Shown: piece after piece, positions 16,196 to 43,623 of the stretch
Position numbering within the stretch: position 1 is the stretch's first letter
How the letters are laid out: every line of letters begins with the position of its first letter
Notes under the pieces: generated by a model
Databases searched by the model: none
What the model was told of the DNA's origin: nothing
Seen by the model: only the letters and a program-made list of their open reading frames with translations
DNA from: a virus
DNA: 45,623 bases
IMG/VR virus record: IMGVR_UViG_3300010885_031493
Span: 1 to 45,623 of that record
Direction: 5' to 3' (one strand)
Position numbers and translations under genes: made by a program

Positions 16196-16345
16196 ATGAA
16201 ATGTCAATATAGAAATTGTGAAACTGAAGTTGAAGGCAGACCAAACAAAAAGTTCTGTTGTATTCAACATAAGCGCAATGAACAGAAATATTTGAAAAGA
16301 AAAAGGGATAAGCAAAAAAAATTAGCGGCAATTAATGAGATGTAA
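16196..16345 (+). CDS. Small zinc-finger protein
   Basis: 49 aa. It begins MKCQYRNCETEVEGRPNKKF, followed by CCIQHKRNEQKYLKRKRDKQ. The spacing CxxxxC...GRPNxxFCxxxH/C suggests one zinc finger with a basic helical tail. The first 26 residues align with the N-terminus of the next protein (MRCKNIRCDSEFLGRPNQLF, CSRKC). It overlaps that gene by 11 nt. Probably a DNA- or RNA-binding peptide, either an ancestral stand-alone copy or a duplicate of the endonuclease's finger. Confidence 0.65.
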   Translation: MKCQYRNCETEVEGRPNKKFCCIQHKRNEQKYLKRKRDKQKKLAAINEM

Positions 16346-17435
16346 AAATATAAGGTGTGACAGTGAGTTCTTAGGTAGACCTAATCAACTTTTCTGTTCA
16401 AGGAAATGTAATTTCTCGAGTTATAAGAGAAATAGTCGAATTAAAGATATTGTAGGTACTCTAAAGTTAGAGTACGATGATGCGATAGCAATAGTTAATA
16501 GAGGTAAAATAAAATACTCAATTAATGATTGGATAGAAAAATGTAATATTAAGTATAATTCATATTATGACTATTCTAAAGTTATATTTAATAAGCTTAT
16601 TGATAAGGTTATTATTATTTGTCCTAGGCATGGTGAGTTCATATTAGCAGCAGGTGTTCATATAAATAAGAAAGGTTGTAGATATTGTAGAGAAAATAAA
16701 AATAAACATCATATTATTGATATTAGAGATAAGCTAAGATTAAATAAATACTTTGATTTTGTTGATTTTGATGTATATGAAGGAAATACACAAAAGGTAA
16801 AGGTTATTTGTAAGAATGATAGTACACATGTTTCAAATGTTGCTATCAGACATCTTATTAATAATAATGTTGGATGTGCTTATTGTTCCAATGTAGGAAT
16901 ACCAACAACTGAGCAATGGATAAAAAAGTGTGAGATTATACATGGGTATAAGTATGACTACTCGGACGCCGTCTATATATCAACTTCATCACCAATTAGA
17001 ATAGTTTGCCCAAATCATGGTGAGTTTTATCAAAGACCTAGTTTACATGCAAACGGTGCTGGTTGTAGAAAATGTAATAAGTCAATCGGTGAGTCAATAG
17101 TTTTTGATATATTAGAATCGATCAAGGTAGATTTTGATACACAAAAGTCATTCAATGGCTTAAAACATAAAAGCAACCTATATTTTGATTTCTATCTATC
17201 AAAATATAATCTTTGTATAGAGTTTGATGGTATTCAACATTATAAAGCATTCAGATTTTTCGGAGGAGAAGAGAAGCTAAAAGATACGAAAATAAAGGAT
17301 GATATTAAAAATAAATTCTGCATAGATAATGGAATTAAATTACTAAGAATATCCTATAGTATAAATTATAAAACAAAGGATAAAATTAAAAGTCAAATTT
17401 ATACAAAAATAATTGCCTATTTAAATGAACTTTAG
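16335..17435 (+). CDS. Vsr-like homing endonuclease upstream of uvsW
   Basis: 366 aa. Order of domains: N-terminal GRPN-type zinc finger (1-30); three zinc-ribbon repeats of the form YDYS...ICPxHGEF...GCxxC (~75-120, ~130-185, ~190-250); then a nuclease module with FDFYLSKYNLCIEFDGIQHY, FRFFGGEE and LLRISYS. The catalytic candidates are the Asp in FDF, the Glu of IEFDG and the His of QHY. This architecture belongs to the Vsr/PD-(D/E)XK-related homing endonucleases linked to phage genes. It ends inside the start of uvsW (11-nt overlap), so the likely target is the uvsW region. Confidence 0.8.
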   Translation: MRCKNIRCDSEFLGRPNQLFCSRKCNFSSYKRNSRIKDIVGTLKLEYDDAIAIVNRGKIKYSINDWIEKCNIKYNSYYDYSKVIFNKLIDKVIIICPRHGEFILAAGVHINKKGCRYCRENKNKHHIIDIRDKLRLNKYFDFVDFDVYEGNTQKVKVICKNDSTHVSNVAIRHLINNNVGCAYCSNVGIPTTEQWIKKCEIIHGYKYDYSDAVYISTSSPIRIVCPNHGEFYQRPSLHANGAGCRKCNKSIGESIVFDILESIKVDFDTQKSFNGLKHKSNLYFDFYLSKYNLCIEFDGIQHYKAFRFFGGEEKLKDTKIKDDIKNKFCIDNGIKLLRISYSINYKTKDKIKSQIYTKIIAYLNEL

Positions 17436-18153
17436 ATATGACGCGAGTGAGGAAAAGTTGGTGGTAACAGAAGCTACAAGGATAGAATATCACCAGATAA
17501 AAATATGGAATACTAGAAAAATAAAAGGCTGGCGATATCTACCTGCTGTGAAGATGGGAGTTTGGAATGGTGATGTTTCATACTTTGATAATGGTAAGGT
17601 AAACTTAGGCTTATGGAGAGAATGTTTTAAAGCCTGTAAGGAAATCGGGGTTGTTTTTAATATCGAAAACCGAGATGAGTTTCCATTAAACCGAACAGTC
17701 ACATTAGAAAGCGTACAAAACTTCTGCAAAGAGTTCTTCAAGACACATAAGGTGAGAGATAAAGAAGGCAACTGGGTTCCATTTATGCCGTATGATTACC
17801 AAATAGAAACTGCTTACAAGATCCTAAGAAATAGATTCTGTTTGGCTTCTGTTGCAACGAGTGGTGGTAAGTCATTAATTATATCAATTGTTTACTTTTA
17901 TACACTTAGAAACGTTAACCCTGATGCAAAACTACTTATAGTTGTACCAAGTATAACACTTGTCTCACAGTTCTATGATGATATGAAAAAATATTTCTAT
18001 GGAGAGAATAATATAAATAATATATATGATTATATGATTGAGATAGAAATGGAGGATGGTTCTATATCAAGGTTTAATCCAAATGAAGATATAAAAACAT
18101 TAAATAGAGGGATAATAAAGGCAAAAGATATAAAAGAGAGTGATGAGTTATGA
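17425..18153 (+). CDS. uvsW: UvsW-like helicase, N-terminal part with intein remnant
   Basis: 242 aa. Residues 1-~110 correspond to the T4 UvsW N-terminal domain (GWRYLPAVKMGVWNGDVSYFD matches the T4 YRFNP...YGNWDGRIRLLD region). ATSGGKSLI is helicase motif I and LLIVVPSITLVSQF is motif Ia. The helicase similarity ends at about residue 199 (GENNINN). The last 43 residues look like the inner part of a split-intein N fragment. The remaining helicase motifs are on the gene at 19381. UvsW remodels branched DNA and R-loops in T4 replication and recombination. Activity here requires association of the two polypeptides. Confidence 0.85.
   Translation: MNFRYDASEEKLVVTEATRIEYHQIKIWNTRKIKGWRYLPAVKMGVWNGDVSYFDNGKVNLGLWRECFKACKEIGVVFNIENRDEFPLNRTVTLESVQNFCKEFFKTHKVRDKEGNWVPFMPYDYQIETAYKILRNRFCLASVATSGGKSLIISIVYFYTLRNVNPDAKLLIVVPSITLVSQFYDDMKKYFYGENNINNIYDYMIEIEMEDGSISRFNPNEDIKTLNRGIIKAKDIKESDEL
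18022..18150 (+). other. Degenerate split-intein N remnant
   Basis: 43 residues: DYMIEIEMEDGSISRFNPNE and then IKTLNRGIIKAKDIKESDEL. The pattern (hydrophobic strand, EDGSxI, block-B position, strand, IKxxDEL) matches the second half of a Hint-domain IntN such as gp41-type inteins (YKITLEDGKEI...). Block A with its catalytic Cys/Ser is absent, and the block-B TxxH is replaced by NPNED. Splicing is not possible from what remains. Confidence 0.65.
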
Positions 18154-19409
18154 ATAAAATTAGTAGGGATGAAGTAATCAATCGATTTATTAATAAACAT
18201 GGAAATAGGTATGACTATTCGAAATATGATTTTGTTAATACAAATTACAAGTCTATAATAATTTGTAAAGATCATGGTGAGTTTTTACAAACCCCATCAA
18301 AACATTTTTATCAAGGTTGTAAAAAATGTTCAGCGTCTGCTAGTAAATATACAATTGATGAGTTAAAAAAAAGTTTGAAATTGATACATGGTGATAAATA
18401 TCAATTTGAGATTGATGACAATTATTTAGATACTAGTTCTAATATATGGATTGTATGCAAACATAGGAGACATTTGATAAAAGCAAAAGCTGCACTTCGG
18501 GGGCAAGGGTGTATATACTGCACTGGTAAAAAATGGCACAATAGAGACTTAATTGAAAGATTAAGTGTTATACATAATAATAGGTATACTTATCCTGACG
18601 ATTATATTGATAGTGATTATATAAATGTTGAGTGTAAATTACATGGCATTTTTGAGATTAAAAAGAATAAACATCTACTTGGATATGGGTGCCGAAAATG
18701 TTCACCAAGGAAAAAGTATGACACTCAATTTTTCATAGAAGTAATAAAAAGTAAATTTTCAAATTACTCGTTTGATAAATGTATATTTAGTAAATTTAAT
18801 GATAAAGTTATTATTACCTGTAATATACATGGTGACTTTGAACAGTATCCACAATATCTACTAGATGGACATGGATGTAAAAAGTGTTCGTTAAAATATA
18901 CTACTGAGGAATTTATAGAAATTTGTAGAAAAAAACATCCAGATATAGATCATTCTGAAGTTGTTTATAATGGGTCACAAAATAAGATTAAACTTAGGTG
19001 TGAGGTTCATGGATACTTTTACCAATCAACAAGCTATTACTTAAATAATAGCAAAGGCTGTCCAAATTGTAGTGAAACTAAAGGTGAGAAATTTATACGA
19101 ATATTTTTATCGGAAAATTCGGAAAATTTTATACCACAGTATAAGTATGATAAGTTTTATTTTGATTTCTATCTACCAAATCGAAATTTATTTATAGAGT
19201 TTAATGGAAAGCAACATTATACCCCAATAGAATTTTTCGGAGGGGATACTTCTTATATGAAGCAAAAGAAAAGAGATATTGAAAAATATTTACTATTCGA
19301 GAATAATACTAATATTAAGCTATTGGTAATTCCATATTGGAATATGAATAAAATTAGTGATATAATATCAAAAGAATTATATGAAAATAAAGAAAGTATT
19401 AAAGGTTAA
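18150..19409 (+). CDS. Vsr-like homing endonuclease inserted inside uvsW
   Basis: 419 aa. About six zinc-ribbon repeats (for example NRYDYSKYDF...ICKDHGEFLQ...GCKKC) are followed by the nuclease module FDFYLPNRNLFIEFNGKQHY, EFFGGD and IKLLVIPY. The start overlaps the stop of the uvsW N part (ATGA), and the end overlaps the start of the C part by 29 nt, so the three form a single coupled operon. Endonucleases of this family are known to sit between the halves of split-intein genes (fractured genes). It probably spread the insertion into intein-free uvsW alleles. Confidence 0.85.
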   Translation: MNKISRDEVINRFINKHGNRYDYSKYDFVNTNYKSIIICKDHGEFLQTPSKHFYQGCKKCSASASKYTIDELKKSLKLIHGDKYQFEIDDNYLDTSSNIWIVCKHRRHLIKAKAALRGQGCIYCTGKKWHNRDLIERLSVIHNNRYTYPDDYIDSDYINVECKLHGIFEIKKNKHLLGYGCRKCSPRKKYDTQFFIEVIKSKFSNYSFDKCIFSKFNDKVIITCNIHGDFEQYPQYLLDGHGCKKCSLKYTTEEFIEICRKKHPDIDHSEVVYNGSQNKIKLRCEVHGYFYQSTSYYLNNSKGCPNCSETKGEKFIRIFLSENSENFIPQYKYDKFYFDFYLPNRNLFIEFNGKQHYTPIEFFGGDTSYMKQKKRDIEKYLLFENNTNIKLLVIPYWNMNKISDIISKELYENKESIKG

Positions 19410-19425
19410 GGTAGATCAGGAAATT
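19381..19425 (+). other. Degenerate split-intein C remnant
   Basis: The first ~15 residues, MKIKKVLKVKVDQEI, match the start of IntC fragments (compare gp41-type MLKKILKIEELDEREL). Helicase sequence resumes at once (RIKEIMSDSPRK). Blocks F and G, with the His-Asn splice junction, are gone. Confidence 0.6.
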
Positions 19426-20379
19426 AGAATAAAGGAGATAATGAGTGATAGTCCAAGAAAACCAGATAATGGAGAGGATCCAAATGTTTATATTGGAACA
19501 TATCAATCACTTATTAACTATCCAAAGGAGTTCTTCTACCAGTTTCATACAGTAGCTTGTGATGAGTCACACCAAGCTAAAGCAACTTCATTAAAGTCTA
19601 TATTAAGTAAAACATTTAAGTATGCTTATAATAGATTTGGTGTATCTGGTACATTTCCATCAGAAGATTCATTAGAAATACTTTCTATACAGTCAGTATT
19701 AGGTCCTATCATAACAGAGGTATCCGCAGATGAATTGGTTAAGAGAGGAACAATTACTCCAATGTCTATCAAAGCTGTTATAATGAATCATAATCAAAAA
19801 GATATAGGTGATAGACTGGCCCAAGTAAGGAAAAGCGGTGCTGGTGCAGAAGTGTTTAGATATGAGAAGGATTTTATGCAACAGTCGGAAAAAAGATTGG
19901 AGCTCATTAAGAAGTTAGTTGATAAATGTGATAAGAATAGTCTTTTATTATTTCACACAATAGAATATGGTAAGAAGATATTTAGTAAGTTAAAATCTGA
20001 ATGTCCTGATAAGGAGTTCTATTATATAGATGGTGAGGTTAGTGGAAAGAAGCGTGAAGCAATAAAGAAGCTGATGGAAGAAGTTGGTGAGAAGCCAAGA
20101 GTACTTATCGCTAGTTTTGGTACACTTTCAACAGGGGTTTCTATTAAGAACCTACACTATTTAATTATGGTTGATTCATTTAAGAGTGAGCAGATTATTA
20201 TACAGTCTATTGGTCGTTTATTAAGATTGTTTGAAGGAAAGGAAAAGGCAATAATATTTGATTTAATAGATGTCTTTGATGATAAGATGGATAATATTCT
20301 ATATAAGCACTGGCTTGAGCGTGAAAAGTTCTACAAGAAGAGAAAGTATCCTTACGCAATAAAAAAAGTCTTATTATAA
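19381..20379 (+). CDS. uvsW: UvsW-like helicase, C-terminal part
   Basis: 332 aa. After the intein remnant the helicase continues with PNVYIGTYQSLINYPKEFF (T4: VVVGTWQTVVKQPKEWF), motif II TVACDESHQAKA, motif III FGVSGTF, VLIASFGTLSTGVSIKNLHY (motif V) and IIIQSIGRLLRLFEG (motif VI). All motifs beyond Ia are here, so RecA domain 1 is itself broken between the two proteins. An alternative start at 19441 (MSDSPRK), preceded by AAAGGAG, would give a remnant-free subunit. It ends back to back with the spike gene. Confidence 0.85.
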   Translation: MKIKKVLKVKVDQEIRIKEIMSDSPRKPDNGEDPNVYIGTYQSLINYPKEFFYQFHTVACDESHQAKATSLKSILSKTFKYAYNRFGVSGTFPSEDSLEILSIQSVLGPIITEVSADELVKRGTITPMSIKAVIMNHNQKDIGDRLAQVRKSGAGAEVFRYEKDFMQQSEKRLELIKKLVDKCDKNSLLLFHTIEYGKKIFSKLKSECPDKEFYYIDGEVSGKKREAIKKLMEEVGEKPRVLIASFGTLSTGVSIKNLHYLIMVDSFKSEQIIIQSIGRLLRLFEGKEKAIIFDLIDVFDDKMDNILYKHWLEREKFYKKRKYPYAIKKVLL

Positions 20380-31703: not shown

Positions 31704-32477
31704 ATGATAATAACTGTATGGAAGCCATCATTTAAAAATGTAAATAAAGTTAAGATAATACAACATTATGATATTATTCCGGTGGACTTATTGGTAAGTG
31801 AGAAAAAGAAGGGATGTAAAGTGATTTATAGATGCGATAGGTGCAATGGGTTGAATAGTACAACATCACATACATTATTTGGTGATAATATGAGTAGTAT
31901 CACTAATCAGTTATGTAGGAGTTGTAGGTCACATTTATCACAGGATTATATTGACTGGGATAAAATTAAAGGGTCTATAAGAGACGCTGGATATAAAGTT
32001 ATTACAACAGAATCGGAGTATCTAAGTGGAATTCATAGGTCTGGGTTTAAGCTTAAATTAGTTTGTACAAATGAACATGTATATGAATGTAACTGGAACA
32101 ATTGGAGTAGGGGTAAGAGATGTAGAAAGTGTTATATGGATAATCGAACTAAAAATTCAGTTAAGTATAAATATGGTTACGATTTATATAAATTTTTAGT
32201 ATGGAAGCACACTGAAAAAAGTTATAAGAATAATATACATATAATTAATCCATTAGGCTTAAAAAGAATTGAATTTAATATAGATCATAGATTCTCTATA
32301 GCACAGGGGTTTAAATTAGGTATTCTACCAAATATAATTGGTAGTGTTATTAACTTGGAGATGTTACATCACAAGATTAACTTATCAAAAGGTACAAAAT
32401 GCTCCATAACCTTAGAATACTTATTATTTTATTTTTTGAATCCTTTTATAGCACCCTCATCTTTACCCTTATCATAA
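31704..32477 (+). CDS. HNH homing endonuclease with zinc ribbons
   Basis: 257 aa. Two zinc-ribbon-like segments (YRCDRCNG...LCRSCRSH; LVCTNEHVYECN...GKRCRKCYM) precede an HNH-type core: FNIDHRFSIAQGFKLGILPN, then IGSVINLEMLHHKINLSKGT. The His of DHR, the Asn of INLEML and the His/Asn of HHKIN are the candidate catalytic residues. Free-standing HNH endonucleases with this core are common in phages. The last ~18 residues (LLFYFLNPFIAPSSLPLS) are read through the end of the convergent amidoligase gene (49-nt overlap), so the original stop may have been lost. Confidence 0.75.
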   Translation: MIITVWKPSFKNVNKVKIIQHYDIIPVDLLVSEKKKGCKVIYRCDRCNGLNSTTSHTLFGDNMSSITNQLCRSCRSHLSQDYIDWDKIKGSIRDAGYKVITTESEYLSGIHRSGFKLKLVCTNEHVYECNWNNWSRGKRCRKCYMDNRTKNSVKYKYGYDLYKFLVWKHTEKSYKNNIHIINPLGLKRIEFNIDHRFSIAQGFKLGILPNIIGSVINLEMLHHKINLSKGTKCSITLEYLLFYFLNPFIAPSSLPLS

Positions 32478-35313: not shown

Positions 35314-36183
35314 TTATCTACCCCATTCATAGATTAGTTGGAACCCATTCTCTTCTAAGAATTTAATTTTTTCTATTGTTTTATCATATAATTCAGAATA
35401 AGTTATATTTAGAAATGGGTGAGTTCCAACTATATCCTTTCTATTTGGATTCCCGTGCCAAAATGATCCAAAATATTCATATATGGTATTTGTTGTGTAA
35501 TCAATTCCGTCGACCTTAAACTTTCTACCATTTACTTTTATTACCTGCTCTGGTATAATATTTGTGTTATTAAATGATTCTATCCATTTGTCGCCTGCTA
35601 ACGAGGTATTAAACCCACATTTACTACAACCAGAGCCTGATAAATGTGATGTTGGTGTTATCGAGAACATACCATGCTTGTTGCAGATTATATCTAGCTT
35701 ATTTTTAGCAGTTGAGTATATTGACTTGGAGTAATCATAGCGGTCACCATGAATATACCTAGCATCTATTATAAACTCTTCAGTTGTCTTATTCTTACCG
35801 CAGCATTTAGGGCAGCCTTGTCCATTTAGATGTTTTTGTGGTGATTGTTCGAATAGTCCATGTTTTTTACAGGAAATATGAATTTTTACATTCTTATTTT
35901 TATAGTTTATATGCGAATAATCATAAGTATTATTATGCTTAATATTAGCAATTGATATAAAATCTTCTCCTGTTATCACACCATTGTTACAAAGTTTGCA
36001 TCCACTCTTTCGATTAGAAATATGTAAGTCAGGTCTTATTAGAAAGTCACCGTGTTTAGGACAAGTAATAATAATTTGCGTTCTTATATTAAGATATATT
36101 GTCTTATCATAAGTATAATAATTATTATGTATAATACTAGCTCTATTTATATAATCATCAATTGTTAGTTTTTTTGTGCTCAT
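35314..36183 (-). CDS. Vsr-like homing endonuclease, apparently intact
   Basis: 289 aa. Three zinc-ribbon repeats (NYYTYDKTIY...CPKHGDFLI...GCKLC; NTYDYSHINY...CKKHGLFEQ...GCPKC; RYDYSKSIYS...CNKHGMFSI...GCSKC) are followed by a Vsr-like nuclease: FKVDGIDYTTNTIYEYFGSF, then WHGNP and a C-terminal KIKFLEENGFQLIYEWG. The Asp (VDG), Glu (YEYF) and His (WHGNP) are in the order of the EDxHD-type homing endonucleases. It points toward and ends 2 nt after the radical-SAM gene, a plausible target neighbourhood. Confidence 0.8.
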   Translation of the reverse strand: MSTKKLTIDDYINRASIIHNNYYTYDKTIYLNIRTQIIITCPKHGDFLIRPDLHISNRKSGCKLCNNGVITGEDFISIANIKHNNTYDYSHINYKNKNVKIHISCKKHGLFEQSPQKHLNGQGCPKCCGKNKTTEEFIIDARYIHGDRYDYSKSIYSTAKNKLDIICNKHGMFSITPTSHLSGSGCSKCGFNTSLAGDKWIESFNNTNIIPEQVIKVNGRKFKVDGIDYTTNTIYEYFGSFWHGNPNRKDIVGTHPFLNITYSELYDKTIEKIKFLEENGFQLIYEWGR

Positions 36184-40317: not shown

Positions 40318-40611
40318 ATGATAATAAGAGAGATAACCATCAAGAACTTCAAATCATATGGTAATACAACACAAAGATTGACACTCAACACAGAGAAAGG
40401 AGAACTAATACTATTAGTAGGTAACAATGGTAATGGTAAGTCGGTTACACCCTCTACTGAAATAGATGTTGATATACCACTGGAAAATCTAAATTTAGAG
40501 GAATTAGTACAATTTTTGGGAATAATGGATGGGGAAAGCCGGTATATTTTATATATAAAGGAAAATAATAATTCGTTATATGAAGAGTATATCAAATATA
40601 GAAATCAATAA
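40318..40611 (+). CDS. 46: gp46/Rad50-like ATPase, N part fused to split-intein N fragment
   Basis: 97 aa. Residues 1-41 are the start of a T4 gp46-type SMC ATPase (MIIREITIKNFKSYG; LLVGNNGNGK, Walker A up to its Lys). Residue 42 is Ser1 of an intein (SVTPSTEIDVDIPLENLNLE), which takes up the remaining 56 residues. The Walker A Ser is supplied by the C part after splicing. gp46 with gp47 forms the nuclease complex that prepares DNA ends for recombination-dependent replication. It overlaps the endonuclease gene by 32 nt. Confidence 0.88.
   Translation: MIIREITIKNFKSYGNTTQRLTLNTEKGELILLVGNNGNGKSVTPSTEIDVDIPLENLNLEELVQFLGIMDGESRYILYIKENNNSLYEEYIKYRNQ
40441..40608 (+). other. Split-intein N fragment, Ser1 type, atypical split site
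   Basis: 56 aa starting SVTPSTEIDVDIPLENLNLE. Block A (xVTPxTEI) is complete, with Ser instead of the usual Cys at position 1. Block B is not here but on the C fragment, so the split lies between blocks A and B, unlike the common site near the endonuclease position after block B. Confidence 0.8.
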
Positions 40612-41677
40612 AAAACAGTTGGAAGATTATCTATCTGAGTTTCATCCTGATATGAAAGTAAAGATATTGTCAGAAAATGTTCTTGACTTTGATCGTGGTC
40701 CAAAATCATTCAATGATAAGATGAAGAAGATTATAGCCATGCCTAAGTTTGGTAAAAAAACACTCATATACTGGACAAGTCGTGGGTGGTCTGAGGAGGA
40801 GTCACTTAGTAAGAGAATAAAGACTATTAAAAAACCTAATTCATCACCAATGAATCGTGACTTCTGGAGATTAAGGGGGTTTAATGAAGAACAAATAGAC
40901 TTTCAAATAAAGTCACAGAGAAAGATGAATAAAGAATATTGGATTAAAAATGGATTTTCAGATGATCAGGCGATATTAAAAGTGGAGGAATTTCAGAGAG
41001 AAAGTAGTGGGAGATTTATTAAAAAGCTTAAAAGTGATAAGGATTTTAACCTAAGCGTCTGTAGAAAGAGAAAGAACAACATAAACTATTGGCTAGACAG
41101 AGGCTACAGTTTATCTGACTCTAAGAAGAAACAGTCTGATAGTCAGGTCAAATTCTCATTAGACATATGTATAGGAAAATATGGAGCAGTAAATGGTTTG
41201 AAAGTTTGGGAAGATAGACAACGAAAATGGTCGAGTTCATTATTAAATAATGGCAATTTGAAATCTGGCTATTCATCCATAAGTCTAGAATTGTTTGATA
41301 GTATAGTAAGCTGCTTGCTAGATTATGAACAACAGTTTATAAAATATCATAATAGAGGTGGTGAGTTCTTTATAAATTGTATACCTAATTACTTTTTATA
41401 TGATTTCACCGACCTCTTAAATAATAAAATAATTGAATTCAACGGGGATGTATATCATGGTAATCCTTTAATTTTTCAACCAGATGATATTTGTGTTAAT
41501 TATAAACGTAAGCCCCTTATTGCTAAAGAACTATGGGAAAGGGATAAGGTTAAGATAGATTTAGCAAAGGAGAATGGGTTTGAGGTTTTAGTTATTTGGG
41601 AGTCTGAATATAAAAAGGATAGAATAGGAACACTGAATAAGTGTTTAAGTTTTATAAAAAATAATAAGTGTAAATGA
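40580..41677 (+). CDS. EDxHD-type homing endonuclease inside gene 46
   Basis: 365 aa. Four short repeats of the type (Y/F)Wxx(R/N)G(W/F/Y)S...A/S at ~64, ~95, ~120 and ~170 (YWTSRGWSEEES; FWRLRGFNEEQ; YWIKNGFSDDQA; YWLDRGYSLSDS). Next comes GKYGAVNGLKVWEDRQRKWS, then a Vsr-like nuclease YDFTDLLNNKIIEFNGDVYH with GNP (D, E, H in order), ending LAKENGFEVLVIWESEY. The start overlaps IntN and the stop overlaps IntC by 4 nt (ATGA). This is the arrangement known for fractured genes with split inteins. Confidence 0.88.
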   Translation: MKSISNIEINKKQLEDYLSEFHPDMKVKILSENVLDFDRGPKSFNDKMKKIIAMPKFGKKTLIYWTSRGWSEEESLSKRIKTIKKPNSSPMNRDFWRLRGFNEEQIDFQIKSQRKMNKEYWIKNGFSDDQAILKVEEFQRESSGRFIKKLKSDKDFNLSVCRKRKNNINYWLDRGYSLSDSKKKQSDSQVKFSLDICIGKYGAVNGLKVWEDRQRKWSSSLLNNGNLKSGYSSISLELFDSIVSCLLDYEQQFIKYHNRGGEFFINCIPNYFLYDFTDLLNNKIIEFNGDVYHGNPLIFQPDDICVNYKRKPLIAKELWERDKVKIDLAKENGFEVLVIWESEYKKDRIGTLNKCLSFIKNNKCK

Positions 41678-42042
41678 GGTTTAAAATAACATTAGAAAAG
41701 CTAAATGAATTAAATAATTCAATATCTATTATAGACAAGGGTATTAGTGTTAATACACAAAATGGATATAAGAAAATAAAGGCAATTGGGGTGACATCAC
41801 CAAATTCCGAAAAAATTAAAATTCTTACAAAAGATTTTGAATTGGTTGGGTCACCATCACATAGAGTTAAATTTAAGGAAGATTGGTTTTTTCTAAAAGA
41901 CTTGAAACTGGGTAGCTTTGTAAATACGGTAAATGGTCAACAGGAAATAATTTCTATATCAAATGATAGTAATAAGGAGGATTTATGGGATATTGAGGTT
42001 GATGGTGAGGAGTATTACTCAAACGGTATCTTAAGTCATAAT
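41674..42042 (+). other. Split-intein C fragment with intact splice junction
   Basis: 123 aa. It contains a VNTQNGYKKIKAIGVTSPNS strand pair, block B (LVGSPSHRVKF with the block-B His), block F (LWDIEVDGEEYYSNG) and block G ending ILSHN, followed by Ser+1. All residues needed for the C-terminal cleavage (penultimate His, Asn, nucleophile +1) are present. Confidence 0.85.
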
Positions 42043-43623
42043 TCCTCTTTAATAACAGCATTTGATTATGCTTTATATGGTAAGTGTCGTGGTAATAGAA
42101 AGAAAAGTGCCACGCTATCAACACTTCCCAACCGTATAAACGGTAGTGATATGTTAGTATCAATTGACTTCATGTCTGGTGGAACTGATGTTCTTATCAA
42201 TAGAGGTATATCACCAAATGTCCTTACTCTACAAGAAAATGGTATTGAGAATGATAGAGCAGGTAAGTCTAATATAAGTGAGAAAATAGAAGCTCATATC
42301 GGGTTGGATATGGAAACATTTAAGTCGTTTATATCTATGAGTGTGAATGATTTTAAGGACTTTATATCATTATCAAACGAAGAAAAGCAATTATTATTAG
42401 ATAAGTTATTTAACTTAGAGGTTATCAATATACTAAATGATATTCTTAAGGAGATTAATAAGGCTAATAAGTTACAACTAACAAAGTTTGACTCTGAAAT
42501 ATCCACATTAGATGATTCAATTGAGTCTATTAAAAGGTCTATTCGTAATGCAATTGAGAAAGAGAAACTTAATATACAATCTGAAATAGAAACAATTAAG
42601 TTAGAAATGGATTCCAAAAAAGAAGATTATCAGAAGTTAAAGGAAAAGGTAGATAAAATTAAAGCAAAAGATAAAGAAATTAAGAATGAGCTGGATAGAG
42701 AAAAGGAACAGTTTATCAATATTCAGAATGATATTAGAGCCGTGGATAAAGATATCAATCTTTATAATTCTGGCAAGTGCCCTGTTTGTCAAACTGATTT
42801 TGATAATGATCACTTTCATAACCTTAAGGACATTCTATCTGAGAAGAAAGGAAAATTGGAAGAACTTAAACTGGAAGTCGAAAGTAATATCAAACTTATA
42901 AAAGAAAGGCAAGTAAAGCTACAAAAGATGTCTGATGATACTAATACCGCATTCACTGATATAACCTATTTACTTAGAAGTTATAAAACTCAGATTGATA
43001 AGCTAACCACTCAGAAAGATAGAGAATCGGGTAAATCAAGTCCTAATATAGAAGAGTTTGAACGAACAATAGAAGAGTTGGAAACTAAAAGGGTAACCAG
43101 TCAAGAAGTGTCTTCGATATGTAAAGATAAAGAATTATATTATAAAGAGTTATCTAAGGTATTCAGTGAGGATGGTGTTAAGAAGACAATCATCTCAAAC
43201 ATTGTTAAACCAATTAACCATTTCTTAATGCAGAATCTTAGGAAGATGAATCTACCATTTAATGTTCAGTTAGATGATACATTTACTGCTAATATCAAAC
43301 AGTTAGGTGAGACGATTGAACACGATAGTTTAAGCACAGGTGAGCATAGAAGATTAAGTTTAACAATACTTATATCGTATCTAATGTTAATTAGAACAAA
43401 GCATCAGATTAATATCTTATTCTTGGATGAGATATTCAGTTCAATTGATTTAGAAGGGGTGGATGATATATTAAATCTACTGAAAGACTTTGCAGTAAAC
43501 TATAAGATTAATATCTTTGTAGTGCATCACGCCATAGTAAGTCAAGAATATTTCGATAGAATAATCAAGATTAATAAGGATATATTCTCTACAATTGAAG
43601 AGGTTCAATATGTGCTTGATTAA
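41674..43623 (+). CDS. 46: Split-intein C fragment plus main part of gp46/Rad50-like ATPase
   Basis: 649 aa: IntC (1-123), then the gp46 C part from S124 (SSLITAFDYALYGKCRG). Coiled-coil arms flank a zinc hook CPVC (about residues 368-371). The ABC signature is HDSLSTGEHRRLSL (~550-563) and Walker B is INILFLDEIFSSID (~580). Splicing would yield GNGK-SS-LITAF, a correct Walker A, and a protein of about 567 aa, close to T4 gp46 (560). Without splicing the ATPase has no complete nucleotide site. The gp47 partner is not in the window. It converges on the gene at 43620 with a 4-nt overlap. Confidence 0.9.
   Translation: MRFKITLEKLNELNNSISIIDKGISVNTQNGYKKIKAIGVTSPNSEKIKILTKDFELVGSPSHRVKFKEDWFFLKDLKLGSFVNTVNGQQEIISISNDSNKEDLWDIEVDGEEYYSNGILSHNSSLITAFDYALYGKCRGNRKKSATLSTLPNRINGSDMLVSIDFMSGGTDVLINRGISPNVLTLQENGIENDRAGKSNISEKIEAHIGLDMETFKSFISMSVNDFKDFISLSNEEKQLLLDKLFNLEVINILNDILKEINKANKLQLTKFDSEISTLDDSIESIKRSIRNAIEKEKLNIQSEIETIKLEMDSKKEDYQKLKEKVDKIKAKDKEIKNELDREKEQFINIQNDIRAVDKDINLYNSGKCPVCQTDFDNDHFHNLKDILSEKKGKLEELKLEVESNIKLIKERQVKLQKMSDDTNTAFTDITYLLRSYKTQIDKLTTQKDRESGKSSPNIEEFERTIEELETKRVTSQEVSSICKDKELYYKELSKVFSEDGVKKTIISNIVKPINHFLMQNLRKMNLPFNVQLDDTFTANIKQLGETIEHDSLSTGEHRRLSLTILISYLMLIRTKHQINILFLDEIFSSIDLEGVDDILNLLKDFAVNYKINIFVVHHAIVSQEYFDRIIKINKDIFSTIEEVQYVLD

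What the first reader, a model, noticed from the sequence alone, without database searches (positions are those of the whole stretch)
40318..43623. Fractured gene 46: an atypically split Ser1 intein inside the Walker A motif, with an endonuclease between the halves
Seen: the Walker A motif stops after GNNGNGK. A Ser-initiated block A follows, then an EDxHD-type endonuclease gene overlapping both sides, then IntC with blocks B, F and G ending HN/S and the rest of gp46. Joining K41 to S124 restores GNGKSS and a length near that of T4 gp46. Known: fractured phage genes with split inteins and Vsr-like endonucleases exist, but most split inteins break after block B and start with Cys. Here the break is before block B, IntN is 56 aa, IntC is 123 aa, and residue 1 is Ser. 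Inference: recombination and replication depend on trans-splicing of this protein.
Basis: partly seen in the sequence, partly recalled or inferred. Interest (0 to 1): 0.88.

Follow-up and report, generated by a model that had tools for sequence, protein, structure and literature searches.

The report
Split serine intein in phage gene 46
A DNA-repair ATPase gene of a very large phage is cut in two by a mobile element whose halves almost certainly glue the protein back together after translation; it starts with serine instead of cysteine and lacks the histidine thought to go with that, so it can test how inteins change their chemistry.

Summary
Gene 46 (SbcC/Rad50-like) is broken inside its Walker A motif. 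ExtN(41 aa)-IntN(56 aa), a 365-aa nuclease ORF and IntC(123 aa)-ExtC(526 aa) overlap by 32 and 4 nt. Joining K41 to S124 gives 567 aa with GNNGNGK-SS, as in more than 50 unsplit relatives. IntC is a Hint domain (best solved match: VidaL, also atypically split). Two more phage lineages carry the same Ser1/Ser+1 split intein at this site, and at least nine loci carry Cys1 versions. The Ser1 inteins form one clade, but their host gp46 alleles do not (AU p=3e-186), so the element moves. The nuclease's N-terminal module matches its Ser1 relatives; its Vsr/EDxHD-like cutting module matches a DnaB split intein instead, so the cutting module was exchanged. IntN is 56-58 aa with a conserved tail (published natural atypical inteins: 15-37). 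All three Ser1/Ser+1 members have Thr where that subgroup carries the motif NX histidine. Best reading: a mobile, atypically split class-1 intein that trans-splices gp46 and switched from Cys1 to Ser1 without gaining NX His. Splicing is inferred, not shown.

The parts
40318..40440 (+). N-extein of gp46: residues 1-41, ending in the broken Walker A GNNGNGK
   Evidence: SbcC-like PHROG_77 E 7e-6; 73% identical to L007 and L016
40441..40608 (+). IntN, 56 aa, Ser1, block A SVTPSTEID; residues 33-56 (about YILYIKENNNSLYEEYIKYRN) form a tail conserved in five members
   Evidence: pN below pS against L007
40580..41230 (+). nuclease ORF residues 1-217: repeated YWxxRGxSxEE motifs, probably the DNA-targeting module; first 32 nt overlap IntN
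   Evidence: 52% identical to L016, 47% to L007, 46% to L067 nucleases (alignment)
41231..41677 (+). nuclease ORF residues 218-365: Vsr/EDxHD-like cutting domain (E286, D290, H293, D322); stop overlaps IntC start (ATGA)
   Evidence: 54% identical to the L008 (DnaB split intein) nuclease, 36-40% to L009-L011, no match to the L016/L007 cutting domain; weak fold matches to Vsr and I-Bth0305I
41674..42042 (+). IntC, 123 aa: Thr41 at the NX position, block B His63, block F Asp106, block G His122-Asn123
42043..43623 (+). C-extein of gp46: Ser+1 then 525 aa, SbcC/Rad50-like
   Evidence: PHROG_77 E 7e-65; 61-68% identical to unsplit and split relatives

Best explanation
This is a mobile, naturally and atypically split class-1 intein of the Ser1/Ser+1 type in the P-loop of phage gp46. 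The two gp46 fragments are made separately from an overlapping three-gene unit. IntN docks into the preformed Hint fold of IntC. Ser1 attacks the K41 peptide bond, the ester passes to Ser+1, Asn123 cyclises, and a 567-aa gp46 with intact GNNGNGKSS is released. The nuclease between the halves, in trans, cuts intein-free gp46 genes at or near the Walker A codons, and the element spreads by homing. The lineage descends from Cys1 inteins at the same site and changed to Ser1 without acquiring the NX histidine. Shown here: anatomy, fold prediction of IntC, conserved catalytic residues, purifying selection, empty sites, conflicting host and intein trees, exchange of the cutting module. Inferred: splicing itself, cutting at this site, and dependence of the phage on the spliced product.
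For: Intact gp46 in more than 50 relatives reads straight through the junction. IntC alone is modelled at pLDDT 91, matches VidaL at TM 0.85, E 1e-7, and its family profile matches the CatC atypical intein at E 1e-11. His63, Asp106, His122 and Asn123 are invariant in ten IntCs from gp46 and DnaB. pS exceeds pN in IntN and IntC (0.55/0.25 and 0.64/0.30). Ser1 is present in three lineages, with identical L016-type copies in three metagenomes. The Ser1 clade has 96/97 support inside a Cys1 family; the host alleles are rejected as one clade. IntC is 70% identical to L016 while the C-extein is only 61%. T41 aligns with NX His in a profile alignment and in gapless spacing (22 residues before block B His in both). 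One gp46 per relative's contig.
Against: No experiment. IntN residues 1-24 evolve fast (46% identity to L007). The nuclease fold match is weak (E above 0.1, model pTM 0.39). The dS estimates are near saturation. Losses of the element could also produce part of the tree conflict.
Confidence: 0.87

Rival explanations
1. The two gp46 fragments assemble without ligation, as the mobE-split NrdA of phage Aeh1 does; the intein pieces only hold them together.
For: Unspliced working split enzymes exist in T4-like phages (PMC2988022). Another gene in this window, a UvsW-like helicase, is split with Hint-like remnants that lack splice residues.
Against: The break lies inside the P-loop between K and S, where a gap should destroy ATP binding. 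All splice residues are kept in many lineages.
Confidence: 0.06
2. The intein is decaying and splices poorly or not at all; another gp46 copy serves the phage.
For: NX His is absent; the window is only 45.6 kb of a much larger genome, judging by 634-642 kb relatives.
Against: All ORFs are open; pN is below pS; three Ser1 lineages persist; one gp46 per contig in eight relatives.
Confidence: 0.05
3. The gene is joined at another level: an intron removed from RNA, or frameshifting that fuses IntN to the nuclease.
For: The ORFs overlap by 32 and 4 nt.
Against: No Rfam intron at E up to 1. The frames would need two shifts and would leave the product with more than 500 extra residues. Intein motifs and HN/S make RNA splicing unnecessary.
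Confidence: 0.02

Closest known systems
Aes123 PolB1 split intein (Aeromonas phage), Ser1/Ser+1, cysteine-less
   Same: Ser1 and Ser+1; phage replication gene; VSR-type nuclease ORF overlapping both halves (relative Aes144)
   Different: Aes breaks after block B (IntN about 120 aa) and has the NX His; the window breaks before block B and has Thr there
PolB16 OarG intein
   Same: Ser1/Ser+1, split before block B; called the only known natural cysteine-less atypically split intein (PMC13014065)
   Different: IntN 15 aa and IntC 168 aa, needs NX His68 (PMC10189870); the window has IntN 56 aa, IntC 123 aa and no His before block B
AceL-TerL / GOS-TerL (and consensus Cat) inteins
   Same: Split after block A and a first helix; GOS-TerL has Ser1 and lacks NX His; the IntC profile matches CatC best
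   Different: GOS-TerL is Ser1/Cys+1 with a 37-aa IntN in terminase (PMC11766414); the window is Ser1/Ser+1 with 56 aa in gp46
VidaL intein
   Same: Atypical split; best fold match to IntC (TM 0.85)
   Different: VidaL is cysteine-dependent with a 16-aa IntN (PMC13014065)
I-Bth0305I / Vsr (EDxHD homing endonucleases)
   Same: Motif E..GDxYH..D and weak fold match
   Different: Different targeting module of YWxxRG repeats; activity untested; the review PMC3943268 treats EDxHD enzymes as group I intron homing endonucleases

Membership tests
Class 1 intein | Hint fold | tested here: met
   IntC model pLDDT 91; VidaL TM 0.85, E 1.1e-7
Class 1 intein | nucleophile at residue 1, block B His, block F Asp, HN at the end, +1 Ser/Thr/Cys | tested here: met
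   Ser1, H63, D106, H122-N123, Ser+1
Class 1 intein | splicing activity | not testable with these tools
   needs expression
Atypically split intein | break between blocks A and B | tested here: met
   IntN ends before block B; aligned to contiguous TerL inteins
Atypically split intein | IntN of 15-37 aa as published | tested here: not met
   56 aa here, 56-58 in Ser1 relatives, 58-59 in two Cys1 relatives; range from PMC13014065; a descriptive range rather than a definition
Ser1/Ser+1 (cysteine-independent) subgroup | Ser at 1 and Ser/Thr at +1 | tested here: met
   no Cys in either window intein part
Ser1/Ser+1 (cysteine-independent) subgroup | motif NX His preceded by Arg/Lys | tested here: not met
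   Thr41 preceded by Val; no His before block B in IntN or IntC of window, L007 or L016
EDxHD / Vsr-like homing endonuclease | E, D, H, D catalytic residues in a Vsr-like fold | tested here: inconclusive
   E286, D290, H293 invariant in 8 relatives, D322 not invariant; Vsr foldseek prob 0.96 but E 0.3
Fractured gene with split intein and nuclease | host gene split by a nuclease ORF lying between IntN and IntC | tested here: met

The most novel reading that the evidence does not exclude
Within one intein allele (one insertion site) a Cys1 split intein became a working Ser1/Ser+1 split intein without the NX histidine held to be the signature of that chemistry, so Ser1 must be activated in another way. 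Its long IntN tail would be a new docking element, and its nuclease exchanged its cutting domain while keeping its targeting domain.
Probability: 0.55. Interest if true: 0.72.

Novelty: new variant of a known kind. Interest (0 to 1): 0.64.

Why it matters
How an intein moves between cysteine and serine chemistry is an open question: C1S mutants of Cys1 inteins usually die, and a histidine (motif NX) is said to be what Ser1 inteins need. Here natural Cys1 and Ser1 versions occupy the same site in the same gene, so the changes needed can be read off and tested. The window's intein is fully cysteine-free and atypically split, a combination reported for one natural intein so far and wanted for protein labelling. 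The nuclease shows how a homing element can keep its target while renewing its cutter. And a recombination protein that may help repair homing breaks is itself the homing target.

Tried and rejected
Group I intron or other structured RNA: none at E up to 1. IntC as a single query in viral contigs: nothing; as an alignment: five loci. Bacterial and archaeal genomes: no IntC relative. Pfam on the nucleases: nothing above cut-off, and no meaningful PDB relative of the window nuclease by sequence, hence the fold search. Ser1-specific IntC positions (39, 42, 59, 64, 105 near the active site) were listed, but by my count they cluster there no more than expected and may only reflect clade history, so I make no claim from them. 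Relatives of the second split gene's nuclease: none found. Three key papers (looked up by DOI or PMC id; Dassa 2009, Bachmann and Mootz 2015, Taylor 2011) are not in the library, so whether a gp46 allele was listed before is unknown; searches for intein with gp46 or Rad50 gave nothing relevant. Whole-intein folding was not possible, because IntN and IntC are not one natural chain.

Full report
Observation. ExtN-IntN is 40318-40611, a nuclease ORF 40580-41677, and IntC-ExtC 41674-43623. The first protein stops matching gp46 at GNNGNGK, and the third starts matching at SSLITAFD. Joining K41 to S124 gives 567 aa. More than 50 unsplit gp46 genes from related contigs read through the same point as GxNGxGK-SS or a close variant. 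The nearest records in the phage collection are 634-642 kb uncultured phages, so the 45.6-kb window is probably a small piece of a huge-phage genome.

The intein. IntN begins SVTPSTEID (block A). IntC carries GSPSH (block B), DLWDIEVDG (block F) and SHN (block G), followed by Ser. IntC alone is predicted with pLDDT 91 and its best solved match is VidaL, itself atypically split (TM 0.85, E 1e-7). By profile the best PDB matches are CatC, gp41-1 and VidaL at E 1e-11 to 6e-11. Aligned with contiguous terminase inteins, the break falls after block A and a first helix-like stretch, before block B, as in AceL-TerL and GOS-TerL.

Relatives. The same site is occupied by split inteins in at least 12 distinct loci. 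Ser1/Ser+1: window, L007, and L016 (identical in three metagenomes). Cys1/Ser+1: L059, L067, L011, L083, L128, L157. Cys1/Thr+1: L009, L010, L012, L013. L008 is a similar element in a DnaB-type helicase Walker A. The catalytic residues His63, Asp106, His122 and Asn123 are invariant in the ten aligned IntCs. Between window and L007, pS exceeds pN in IntN (0.55 against 0.25) and in IntC (0.64 against 0.30).

Serine chemistry. PMC10189870 reports that Ser1/Ser+1 or Thr+1 inteins nearly always carry a histidine (motif NX), preceded by Arg or Lys, and that removing it abolished or nearly abolished splicing in the inteins tested. In the Aeromonas PolB1 intein (Aes144) that His lies 22 residues before block B His. 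In the window that place is Thr41, preceded by Val, and a profile alignment pairs the two. No histidine occurs anywhere before block B in the IntN or IntC of window, L007 or L016. Thr is invariant there in Cys1 members too. The intein tree puts the three Ser1 inteins in one clade (96/97) beside Cys1 gp46 inteins, with Cys1 outgroups. The simplest reading is one change from Cys1 to Ser1 without gain of NX His. GOS-TerL also lacks NX His but has Cys+1, which was offered as a possible reason it can do without; that reason does not apply here.

Long IntN. Published natural atypical IntNs are 15-37 aa (PMC13014065). Here it is 56, and 56-59 in four relatives, with a shared tail ...YIxYIKENNxxLYExYI. 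The tail is conserved outside the overlap with the nuclease gene (IntN 25-46: 64% identity), so it is not only a by-product of the overlap. A role in docking is my inference.

Mobility. In the gp46 tree the three Ser1-split alleles sit apart among intact ones: L016 beside intact L053 (100/100), L007 beside intact L005/L006. Holding them together is rejected (AU p 3e-186; broader tree). IntC of window and L016 is 70% identical while their C-exteins are 61%. This fits homing. In L013 the nuclease gene is broken by frameshifts while IntN and IntC are intact, as expected after a nuclease has served its turn, though sequencing error is possible.

Nuclease. Residues 1-217 are 46-52% identical to the nucleases of L016, L007 and L067, whereas residues 218-365 do not match theirs but are 54% identical to the DnaB-intein nuclease L008 and 36-40% to L009-L011. 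So the cutting domain was exchanged on a common targeting domain. The window's cutting domain has E286, D290, H293 (invariant in eight relatives) and D322, hits phage proteins annotated VSR endonuclease, and weakly matches Vsr and I-Bth0305I by fold. The other type (L016, L007, L059, L067) looks PD-(D/E)XK-like by eye only.

Conclusion. It is a new variant of a known kind: an atypically split, mobile class-1 intein. The added interest is the Cys1-to-Ser1 change within one allele without NX His, the long IntN, and the swapped cutter. Trans-splicing itself remains to be shown.

Noticed in passing
window 17425-20379: A second fractured gene: a UvsW-like helicase split by a 419-aa treble-clef nuclease ORF. 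The N-half ends in and the C-half begins with Hint-like stretches (IEIEMEDGSISRFNPNEDIKTLNRGIIKAKDIKESDEL; MKIKKVLKVKVDQEI) absent from intact relatives, but without block A or HN: perhaps a decayed split intein whose halves work unspliced.
   Followed up: partly
window 16335-17435: ORF with treble-clef-like repeats and a nuclease-like end, overlapping the helicase N-half by 11 nt; probably another free-standing homing nuclease.
   Followed up: no
window 35314-36183 and 31704-32477: Two further homing-type nuclease genes (PHROG 559/681); the first ends in a Vsr-like EYFGSFWHGNP motif.
   Followed up: no
L008 5794-6045: DnaB-type helicase split intein with an extra 83-aa ORF between the nuclease and IntC.
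   Followed up: no
L013 4317-5310: Nuclease gene broken by frameshifts while IntN and IntC stay open.
   Followed up: no
L190 8736-9461: Possible typically split intein C-half (HN/SASSPFRVHRNQ) in a gyrase/topoisomerase-like gene, 3 kb after a related nuclease.
   Followed up: no
L083 3798-4178: A minimal 126-aa nuclease without the targeting repeats between the halves of a split gp46.
   Followed up: no
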